A stretch of 34,810 nt of DNA, taken from a virus. The notes beneath the pieces were generated by a model. It did no database searches. It saw only the letters and a list, made by a program, of their open reading frames with translations, and was not told the origin of the DNA. Numbering within the stretch: the stretch's first letter is position 1; every line of letters begins with the position of its first letter. The stretch is taken from the IMG/VR virus record IMGVR_UViG_3300037137_003697, positions 1-34,810 of that record; one strand, given 5' to 3'. Position numbers and translations under genes: made by a program. This document shows positions 29,692 through 31,471 of this stretch, piece by piece.

Positions 29692-29895
29692 TCAGACTGT
29701 GGCCTCGAGCGCCGGCACGATGACCTGGTCGAGCCGATCGAGGCGGTCGCGCAGCTCGTCGTCGCCGGCGCGCGCCGCCCGCAGCTCCTGGCGCAGCCGC
29801 TCGTTGTCCTGGGCCAGCTCGAGAATCCGCCGGTCCGCCTCGCGCAACTGCGCGCGTGCGGCGGCCAGTTCGCCGATCAACACCGTCTGAGTCAT
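29692..29895 (-). CDS. Small coiled-coil protein
   Basis: 67 aa, almost entirely one predicted coiled coil (ELAAARAQLREADRRILELAQDNERLRQELRAARAGDDELRDRLDRL). The ATG overlaps the TGA of the CII-family regulator gene (ATGA), so the two are co-translated. It may be a partner or modulator of that regulator. No enzymatic motif. Confidence 0.7.
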   Translation of the reverse strand: MTQTVLIGELAAARAQLREADRRILELAQDNERLRQELRAARAGDDELRDRLDRLDQVIVPALEATV

Positions 29896-30395
29896 GCCGC
29901 CCCATCCCTTCGTTCAGCCAGGCACCGCACGACCGCCTCGAGGGCCGCGGCTGCCTGGTGCATCTGGTGCACTTCGCAATCGATCCGGTCGACTTCTTCC
30001 GCCGTGATGCGGCCGTCGGCCACTGCTGCCCGCACGGCGTCCAGGGTGTCGCCCACTTCCTTGACCAGGCGTGCGCTCATCGCGAACAAGTCGACGTCGG
30101 CGACGTCGACGTCCGGCAGACGCACCGCGACGCGTCCCACCATGCGCTCCATGAAGTCGAGCAACGCGAAGTTGCCGGTGGCCACCGTGATGGGGACGAT
30201 GAGGCGCGCCTGCAGCTGGTGGGTCTCGTCGTACTGGCTGGCCGCGGCGCGCAGATAGGCCACGTTCGTGCCGACCCGCTCGGCGATGTCCGCCAACGGC
30301 AGGGCGGAATGGTGCAGCGCGCAGTCCACCGCTTCGGCCCACGTCCGAGGTTCGCAGCGCTGTCCCGACCGGCACGCCTTTCGACCGTGTGTCAC
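29892..30395 (-). CDS. Phage CII-family transcriptional regulator
   Basis: 167 aa from GTG 30395, chosen because GGAG lies seven bases upstream; the same frame runs further up through the tRNA-like element. The run AVDCALHHSALPLADIAERVGTNVAYLRAAASQYDETHQLQARLIVPITVATGNFALLDFMERMVGRV matches the phage regulatory CII family (Phage_CP76), in which an HTH is followed by an LIVPITxxTGNFxLLDxME segment. It would act as an activator/decision protein next to the immunity region. The C-terminal helix is acidic and rich in Ala. Confidence 0.85.
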   Translation of the reverse strand: MTHGRKACRSGQRCEPRTWAEAVDCALHHSALPLADIAERVGTNVAYLRAAASQYDETHQLQARLIVPITVATGNFALLDFMERMVGRVAVRLPDVDVADVDLFAMSARLVKEVGDTLDAVRAAVADGRITAEEVDRIDCEVHQMHQAAAALEAVVRCLAERRDGAA

Positions 30396-30444
30396 CGGAT
30401 GCTCCAATGGGGGCGGTTGAGTGCCGGTCTCTCCCGGCTTGTCA

Positions 30445-30747
30445 CTACGCTCGGTTTGTATCCCGGCAGCGTGGTCGGTCCGGTTTGCCGTGCTCTGCCA
30501 CTGAGCTACACACGCGACGCGTGCGGATGGATTCGAACCATCGACCTCGGCTCCTGTGGGCACGGGCAGGCGGCTCGGCCGCACGCGCCGGATACTCGCT
30601 CACAGCGCCAACGCAGCGCGGCGTTTTGTCCTCACAGTGAGTCCACCCGCACGACGGGAAGGGGTTCTGCTGCGCCGGCTCCGGACGCGGCCCGTCTTGG
30701 TGGACTTCCCGCCTGCACGTGCTGCACACGACGATTCCCGTACTCAT
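30445..30747 (-). CDS. Small Cys-rich (zinc-finger-like) protein
   Basis: 100 aa from ATG 30747, which has an excellent GGAGGAG eight bases upstream. Residues 7-45 hold VCSTCRREVHQ and PSCGWTHCEDKTPRC, so CxxC, C, HC and C could bind zinc. The last ~40 residues are translated from the permuted tRNA-like element and are unlikely to be conserved as protein. The true gene may end earlier in related phages. An upstream ATG at 30900 in the same frame has a much weaker ribosome site. Confidence 0.5.
   Translation of the reverse strand: MSTGIVVCSTCRREVHQDGPRPEPAQQNPFPSCGWTHCEDKTPRCVGAVSEYPARAAEPPARAHRSRGRWFESIRTRRVCSSVAEHGKPDRPRCRDTNRA
30486..30552 (-). tRNA. Circularly permuted tRNA-like element
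   Basis: Minus strand, in order: half anticodon stem GCCG (30551-30548), five-base variable region AGGTC, T-arm GATGG/TTCGAAT/CCATC (30542-30526), acceptor 3' strand CGCACGC (30525-30519), three-base GTC linker, acceptor 5' strand GCGTGTG (30515-30509), TA, D-arm GCTC/AGTGGCA/GAGC (30506-30492), A, and anticodon stem half CGGC (30490-30487). The acceptor strands pair at 7 of 7 (one G-U) and the anticodon-stem halves at 4 of 4. Every tRNA part is present, but the 3' half precedes the 5' half, so the acceptor stem is closed by a GTC loop and no CCA end exists. Confidence 0.6.
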
Positions 30748-30967: not shown

Positions 30968-31201
30968 TCAGGCGGCCTGGCGCCGGCGCCGCTGCCCGCG
31001 CAGCAGCACCGCGTCGACGTCGGCCCGGGCGTAGAGCGGCTTGCGCCCGCGGTGCGCGGGGACGATGCCGTTTCGCGCCGCCCACTTGCGCGCGTTCTCG
31101 GCGTAGGGCGTGCCCGTGTCCTTGCGGTACATCGAGAGGTGCACGGCGAGGCGCTCGGAGTCGAGCCAAGGCGAGAGTGCAGACGTCTGCACGGGGGTCA
31201 T
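30968..31201 (-). CDS. Small helix-turn-helix DNA-binding protein
   Basis: 77 aa, ATG overlapping the repressor stop (ATGA). The segment LAVHLSMYRKDTGTPYAENARKWAARNGIVPAHRGRKPLYARADVDAVL looks like a winged/excisionase-type fold in which the ARKWAARNGIVPxxRxxKPLYARxDVD run selects a helix and wing. A basic tail follows (RGQRRRRQAA). It may act as Xis, a Cro analogue or an early regulator. The first ten codons overlap a GCAGACGTCTGC palindrome, so the protein reads VQTSA there, and autoregulation is possible. Confidence 0.7.
   Translation of the reverse strand: MTPVQTSALSPWLDSERLAVHLSMYRKDTGTPYAENARKWAARNGIVPAHRGRKPLYARADVDAVLLRGQRRRRQAA
31177..31192. repeat. GCAGACGTCTGC palindrome, copy 6
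   Basis: A 16-bp perfect palindrome inside the first codons of the small HTH gene, directly after the repressor stop codon. It is the only copy inside a reading frame. Confidence 0.85.
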
Positions 31202-31431
31202 GCGGCCTCCGTGATGACGTCGAGCAGATACCGCTCGACCGGTTGCCCCAGCGCGGAGGCGATCGCTGTAGCCGTTTTGGTCGTCTGGATTTCGGACTTG
31301 AGAAACCGGCGGATAGTCATCGGCGACTTCTTCGCCGCCTGCGCGAGGTCCTTGGTTTCCCAGCCCTTGGCGACCATGTCACCGACGACTTTGGCGGCGT
31401 CGAATTCTGGCTTGGGCTGTTGCGTCCCCAT
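31198..31431 (-). CDS. Cro/CI-like prophage repressor
   Basis: 77 aa from ATG 31431. Residues about 13-55 are a five-helix HTH (VVGDMVAKGWETKDLAQAAKKSPMTIRRFLKSEIQTTKTATAIASALGQPV), typical of XRE/CI repressors, with the recognition helix in SPMTIRRFLKSE. Short for a CI with a dimerisation domain, so it may be a Cro-like or CI-short protein. It is divergent from an HTH regulator at 31519. A consensus -35 TTGACA and -10 TATCGT place the transcript start within a few bases of the ATG, suggesting a leaderless mRNA. A GTG at 31443 is in frame but lies inside the -10 box. Confidence 0.8.
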   Translation of the reverse strand: MGTQQPKPEFDAAKVVGDMVAKGWETKDLAQAAKKSPMTIRRFLKSEIQTTKTATAIASALGQPVERYLLDVITEAA

Positions 31432-31440
31432 AACGGGGAC
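31424..31440. promoter_or_regulatory. Candidate operator over the repressor start codon
   Basis: A perfect inverted repeat GTCCCC-ATAAC-GGGGAC. It covers the repressor start codon and the predicted transcript start, which would allow autorepression. Confidence 0.55.
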
Positions 31441-31441
31441 C

Positions 31442-31471
31442 ACGATAGCCCTTCAGCATCCGTAATGTCAA
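31442..31471 (-). promoter_or_regulatory. Sigma70-like promoter of the repressor
   Basis: TTGACA (31471-31466), 18-base spacer, TATCGT (31447-31442). The predicted start falls about four bases before the repressor ATG. Confidence 0.65.

What the first reader, a model, noticed from the sequence alone, without database searches (positions are those of the whole stretch)
30486..30552. Circularly permuted tRNA-like element with closed acceptor stem
Canonical T-arm and D-arm are present, acceptor strands pair 7/7 and anticodon-stem halves 4/4, but the 3' half precedes the 5' half, joined by only three bases. Permuted tRNA genes are established in some algae and archaea, and permuted layout is known for two-piece tmRNA. 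A phage-borne copy without a free acceptor end looks more like a tRNA mimic than a charged tRNA.
Basis: partly seen in the sequence, partly recalled or inferred. Interest (0 to 1): 0.75.

Follow-up and report, generated by a model that had tools for sequence, protein, structure and literature searches.

The report
Orphan Y-RNA-like tRNA mimic in phage
A phage genome carries a small RNA element that folds like a tRNA with its amino-acid end sealed shut; it matches the tRNA-imitating part of bacterial Y RNAs, a known class, but its usual protein partner Ro60 is not in the sequenced fragment.

Summary
On the minus strand, 30487-30551 is a complete tRNA cloverleaf in circularly permuted order: T-arm 5/5, acceptor 7/7 closed by GTC, D-arm 4/4, anticodon stem 4/4. 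No shuffled window gives one (0 of 300). None of 915 ordinary adjacent tRNA pairs cross-pairs 7/7. No tRNA model matches the site, even at E 10. Homologues show what it most likely is. Elements of this layout are abundant in phages and bacteria. Those with one shared flank (class A) go with Ro60/TROVE genes: 24 of 31 phage records, against 0 of 30 ordinary tRNA-array phages; 4 of 4 bacterial genomes tested carry one, adjacent in the two read. That is the setting of bacterial Y RNAs, whose tRNA-like domain is published as a tRNA mimic. Rfam's Y-RNA model YrlA matches the window element at 36.8 bits (class A 32-43; tandem tRNAs 27-30). So this is most likely a YrlA-like tRNA mimic, not a permuted tRNA gene or permuted tmRNA. 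Differences: no Ro60 gene in the 34.8-kb fragment, no recognisable Ro60-binding motif, a statistically modest basal stem, no close homologue. Function is inferred.

The parts
30526..30542 (-). T-arm, GATGG-TTCGAAT-CCATC, 5/5 pairs, canonical TTCGAAT loop
   Evidence: sequence; fold; Rfam YrlA alignment
30509..30525 (-). closed acceptor stem: 3' strand CGCACGC (30519-30525), loop GTC (30516-30518), 5' strand GCGTGTG (30509-30515), 7/7 pairs with one G-U
   Evidence: chance and control
30492..30506 (-). D-arm GCTC-AGTGGCA-GAGC, preceded by TA (30507-30508)
30487..30490 (-). anticodon-stem-like helix, downstream strand CGGC
   Evidence: same 4-bp stem in the YrlA model
30548..30551 (-). anticodon-stem-like helix, upstream strand GCCG, followed by variable loop AGGTC (30543-30547)
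30553..30570 (-). possible small hairpin CCTG-N10-CAGG just upstream of the tRNA-like core
   Evidence: constrained fold only; weak
30579..30595 (-). possible basal stem, 5' strand GTATCCGGCGCGTGCGG
   Evidence: duplex -31.4 vs -22.7 +/- 3.3 in shuffles, 7 of 1000, flanks chosen after the fact and not significant with wider flanks; placed in the basal stem by class A model R1
30458..30478 (-). possible basal stem, 3' strand CCGACCACGCTGCCGGGATAC
   Evidence: as above
29895..30395 (-). downstream gene on the same strand: CII-like phage regulator (PF06892, 78 bits; phrog_101)
31201..31443 (-). upstream gene on the same strand: small HTH repressor-like protein (phrog_769)

Best explanation
The element is the tRNA-like module of a bacterial Y-RNA-like (YrlA-type) small RNA encoded between regulatory genes of a temperate-phage-like genome (integrase, CII-like and repressor-like genes present). 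The transcript folds as it stands: its two flanks probably pair into a basal stem, and the rest folds into a cloverleaf whose acceptor stem is closed by GTC. It therefore has no 3' CCA end, cannot be aminoacylated, and needs no splicing. By analogy with YrlA it would be modified by tRNA enzymes and bind PNPase with the tRNA-like face, or compete with tRNAs for a tRNA-binding protein such as an anticodon nuclease, while the basal stem would hold a Ro60 ring. Shown: sequence, pairings, YrlA-model match, and the Ro60 linkage of class A homologues. Inferred: transcription, the basal stem, any protein partner, and function. No Ro60 gene is in the fragment, so a partner would have to come from the host or from missing phage sequence, or the RNA works without Ro60.
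For: Rfam YrlA matches 30486-30550 over model positions 23-87 of 114, 36.8 bits, E 8.7e-7 (E 2.6e-8). Same model on class A elements: 43.4, 41.7, 39.9, 39.4, 32.0 bits; on tandem tRNAs: 27.5 and 30.5. Class A elements have the same closed-acceptor layout, and their basal helices covary although they were not selected for pairing (P1 86% paired, 6 of 7 pairs with changes on both sides; P2 75%, 6 of 9). TROVE/Ro60 occurs in 24 of 31 class A phage records, 0 of 30 tandem-tRNA phages (Fisher 5e-11) and 4 of 4 class A bacterial genomes tested. In Paenibacillus L517 and Streptomyces L474 the element lies directly upstream of a gene I read as TROVE by sequence, and one search finds a TROVE match in both genomes. 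Literature: the YrlA tRNA-like domain has D, T and acceptor arms and binds PNPase (PMC8394870); it may act as competitive inhibitor of an anticodon nuclease (PMC7790460).
Against: 36.8 bits is below Rfam's gathering score of 69 and only the core matched; Ro60-linked class A elements also fall below it. The class A full-length model gives 55.8 bits to the window but up to 57.8 to tandem tRNAs, so that score does not discriminate. No TROVE gene in the 34.8-kb record. The class A motifs (GUGCGNA, UUACUUC, CUUGAUCU) are absent. The basal stem is significant only with narrow, post hoc flanks. No close homologue was found, so no covariation test on the element itself. No promoter or terminator was recognised for it.
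Confidence: 0.72

Rival explanations
1. A true circularly permuted tRNA gene: the transcript is cut and joined at the anticodon side and opened at the acceptor by RNase P and RNase Z, giving a working tRNA.
For: Complete cloverleaf in permuted order. In many class A and B homologues the two halves join into perfect anticodon arms: U33 in 45 of 46 (A) and 24 of 26 (B) of those with an early split; positions 27-28 pair with 42-43 in 1.68 of 2 cases against 0.57 for swapped partners.
Against: The window's own arm is not canonical: only 4 bp, no U33 in the 7-nt loop read (CCACAGG). Class A are Y-RNA-like and linked to Ro60, and the same pairs form as a three-way junction without splicing. No known bacterial enzyme for the splice; no RtcB in 30 permuted-element phages and an RNA ligase in only 6 of 30.
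Confidence: 0.09
2. Fossil of a tandem tRNA array: 3' half of one tRNA followed by 5' half of the next, outer halves lost.
For: Each half looks like an ordinary tRNA half; the class A model scores tandem tRNAs as high as the window.
Against: 0 of 915 adjacent tRNA pairs cross-pair 7/7; the 3-nt spacing leaves no CCA; no trace of outer halves.
Confidence: 0.05
3. A phage-specific tRNA-like decoy that evolved on its own or drifted far from Y RNAs, working without Ro60, for example against an anticodon nuclease or on PNPase.
For: No TROVE in the record, and none in the records of L366 and L075, other closed-acceptor elements without class A/B motifs; class B elements show that closed-acceptor tRNA-likes without Ro60 are common in phages (0 of 19 records with TROVE).
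Against: YrlA model match; the record is an incomplete fragment; no functional data.
Confidence: 0.14

Closest known systems
Bacterial Y RNA YrlA (Rfam RF02553; Salmonella YrlA, PDB 6CU1)
   Same: D-arm, T-arm, closed acceptor stem, 4-bp anticodon-like stem, strands in permuted order; core matches at 36.8 bits
   Different: Acceptor loop only 3 nt; no recognised Ro60-binding stem; no Ro60/RtcB operon in the fragment; score below the gathering threshold
Class A elements found here (Ro60-linked, in phages and in Actinobacteria, Firmicutes and others)
   Same: Same closed-acceptor cloverleaf, basal stem from the flanks
   Different: Class A has an anticodon arm split 27-28 / 29-31 with canonical loop, and GUGCGNA and UUACUUC motifs; the window has none of these
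Circularly permuted tRNA genes of Cyanidioschyzon and Thermofilum (from general knowledge)
   Same: 3' half before 5' half
   Different: Those are processed at a splicing motif into real tRNAs; nothing like it is shown here
Permuted (two-piece) tmRNA
   Same: acceptor strands in swapped order
   Different: tmRNA and tmRNA_permuted models do not hit the window; canonical D-stem present; a tag reading frame was not sought separately

Membership tests
Bacterial Y RNA (YrlA type) | tRNA-like domain with D, T and closed acceptor arms | tested here: met
Bacterial Y RNA (YrlA type) | basal stem made by pairing of the 5' and 3' ends | tested here: inconclusive
   possible 15-17 bp stem, 7 of 1000 shuffles with narrow flanks but not significant with wider ones; no homologues for covariation
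Bacterial Y RNA (YrlA type) | Ro60 (Rsr/TROVE) gene nearby | tested here: inconclusive
   none in the 34.8-kb record, but the record is a linear fragment and the host may supply it
Bacterial Y RNA (YrlA type) | binds Ro60 and PNPase; carries D and pseudouridine | not testable with these tools
   needs biochemistry
Bacterial Y RNA (YrlA type) | reaches the Rfam gathering score for YrlA (69 bits) | tested here: not met
   36.8 bits; Ro60-linked class A elements also score only 32-43, so the cut-off is narrow. The window is therefore described as YrlA-like, not filed as a full member
Permuted tRNA gene | canonical anticodon loop after joining the halves | tested here: inconclusive
   best reading gives 4 pairs and loop CCACAGG, no U33
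tmRNA (permuted) | match to tmRNA covariance models | tested here: not met
   no hit at E 10
Ordinary tRNA | match to tRNA model or ARAGORN | tested here: not met

The most novel reading that the evidence does not exclude
The element is a Ro60-independent phage tRNA decoy, or a real permuted tRNA gene whose product is released by an unknown bacterial splicing route, which as far as I know would be the first in Bacteria or their viruses.
Probability: 0.15. Interest if true: 0.75.

Novelty: new variant of a known kind. Interest (0 to 1): 0.38.

Why it matters
Y RNAs and their tRNA-like domain are known from bacteria with Ro60. A phage copy in a regulatory region without Ro60 in reach would suggest that phages use the tRNA-like module on its own, for instance to engage PNPase or to protect tRNAs from host anticodon nucleases. 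The survey also shows that such closed-acceptor tRNA-likes are common in phages and bacteria and are missed by tRNA finders and by Rfam's default cut-off.

Tried and rejected
Permuted group I intron flanks: no Rfam intron hit, and repeated units only about 140-170 nt apart leave too little flank. RNA ligase/RtcB as partner: RtcB 0 of 30, RNA_ligase 6 of 30 permuted-element phages. Permuted tmRNA: no model hit. Splicing as the general explanation of canonical anticodon arms in class A: set aside once the Ro60 linkage appeared, since the same pairs form as a three-way junction. Close homologues of the window locus: CII-like protein, phrog_210 protein and an acceptor-specific DNA pattern gave none in IMG/VR, no phage record, and only 29-33% identical CII proteins in 4 of 398 Pseudomonadota (none of those loci turned up a closed-acceptor element). 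The full-length class A model as a classifier: tandem tRNAs score as high. Three papers on bacterial Y RNAs were sought by DOI or PMC id but are not held.

Full report
What is there. On the minus strand of the window, between an upstream repressor-like gene region and a CII-like regulator, 30487-30551 reads GCCG-AGGTC-GATGG-TTCGAAT-CCATC-CGCACGC-GTC-GCGTGTG-TA-GCTC-AGTGGCA-GAGC-A-CGGC. Folding this stretch gives exactly T-arm, acceptor hairpin, D-arm and a 4-bp anticodon-like stem. It is a tRNA cloverleaf cut in the anticodon loop and sealed at the acceptor. Shuffled windows never give it (0 of 300), and 915 adjacent ordinary tRNA pairs never cross-pair 7/7. No tRNA finder or tRNA/tmRNA covariance model matches it, even at E 10.

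A survey of relatives. Pattern scans of IMG/VR and of bacterial genomes, filtered for acceptor pairing, gave 278 hits to closed-acceptor elements in the fetched loci, some of them overlapping copies. Two flank types dominate. Class A: P1 - GUGCGNA - P2 - UUACUUC - 3' half - closed acceptor - 5' half - P2' - CUUGAUCU - P1'. Class B: P1 - ACAGCAA ... P1' - CUGUU. The acceptor, T- and D-stems and, in alignment A3, the anticodon stem were selection criteria, so their covariation is not independent evidence; P1 and P2 were not selected and do covary. In class A the anticodon stem is split: positions 27-28 come from the downstream half and 29-31 from the leader. Over classes A and B, own partners pair at 27-28 in 1.68 of 2 cases, swapped partners in 0.57.

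What class A is. In Paenibacillus (L517) and Streptomyces (L474) a class A element sits directly upstream of a gene I read as TROVE/Ro60; in L517 an RtcB-like ligase lies in the same run of genes (reading from sequence). The TROVE model confirms a match in both genomes and in two others tested. Among phage records, 24 of 31 with class A elements carry TROVE, against 0 of 19 with class B and 0 of 30 with ordinary tRNA arrays. This is the genomic setting of bacterial Y RNAs. Published description: a basal stem that holds Rsr/Ro60 and a tRNA-like domain with D, T and acceptor arms that binds PNPase and is modified by DusA and TruB (PMC8394870); in Salmonella yrlBA lies with rsr and rtcBA, and the tRNA-like domain may inhibit an anticodon nuclease (PMC7790460). 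From memory, Chen et al. 2014 reported Y RNAs near Ro60 in more than 250 bacterial and phage species; that paper is not held here.

The window element against this class. Rfam YrlA matches 30486-30550 at 36.8 bits, E 8.7e-7, with the same 4-bp anticodon-like stem. Class A elements score 32-43 bits with the same model and tandem tRNAs 27-30, so the window lies inside the range of Ro60-linked elements, though all are below Rfam's cut-off of 69. The class A model R1 aligns full length to 30453-30598 at 55.8 bits and places 30579-30595 / 30458-30478 as basal stem, but tandem tRNAs reach 57.8 with it, so I do not lean on that score. The basal stem has 7 of 1000 shuffles as good with narrow flanks, and is unremarkable with wider ones. 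The class A motifs are absent. L366, a phage contig without TROVE, holds another such element (YrlA 33.0 bits).

Reading. The best account is an orphan YrlA-like tRNA mimic. It needs no splicing and cannot be charged, because the acceptor is closed by GTC. How it acts is inferred by analogy: a handle for PNPase, with or without a Ro60 ring from the host, or a competitor for tRNA-binding proteins. A true permuted tRNA gene is less likely: the window's anticodon arm is not canonical and no processing enzyme is known.

Limits. The record is a 34.8-kb linear fragment, so absence of Ro60 is not proof. No close homologue was found, so covariation could not be tested on the element itself. Nothing here shows that it is transcribed.

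Noticed in passing
class B elements, e.g. L118:8726-8850, L248:1136-1218, L352:8233-8369: A second family of closed-acceptor tRNA-likes in phages with a conserved P1 - ACAGCAA ... P1' - CUGUU frame; P1 covaries, no TROVE in 19 records, and YrlA matched only weakly in the few tested (25-28 bits, like tandem tRNAs). I found no Rfam family for it.
   Followed up: partly
L021 (minus, near 433), L279:2119-2240, L322:2258-2370, L357:438-553 (Vibrio phage PhiImVa-1, annotated tRNA-TERM of 115 nt); probably Pectobacterium phage CBB KU574722.1:302668-302768 (annotated tRNA-Ser): The same ACAGCAA hairpin occurs as a 30-52-nt insertion in the anticodon stem of tRNA genes in normal order; 14 of 23 give a 5/5 anticodon stem once it is removed. 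It looks like a small unrecognised tRNA intron or extra arm.
   Followed up: partly
L095 near 1429, L007 near 811, L241 near 8187: Class B-like elements with T-arm, acceptor hairpin and a D-arm-like hairpin but apparently no anticodon arm (read by eye).
   Followed up: no
class A elements in bacterial genomes, e.g. L517, L474, L486: Ro60-linked Y-RNA-like elements often carry a canonical anticodon loop (U33 in 80 of 86), mostly CUNNUAA with A37, as if they mimic tRNAs down to the anticodon loop. Rfam's default cut-off misses them.
   Followed up: partly
Caulobacter phage CcrColossus JX100810.1:109217-109284 (L354:406-473): Annotated tRNA-Gln is probably a misread of a class A closed-acceptor element (leader plus 3' half); the class A model covers 398-572 of L354 at 92 bits and TROVE lies about 1 kb away.
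   Followed up: partly
L018:5852-6267 and L277:905-1499: GOLLD and ROOL giant RNAs lie next to tRNA genes in these phage contigs.
   Followed up: no
window 29892-30584 minus: An open frame runs through the element (..GSNPSARVACVAQWQS..); it is probably a translation artefact of tRNA-like sequence upstream of the CII-like gene.
   Followed up: no
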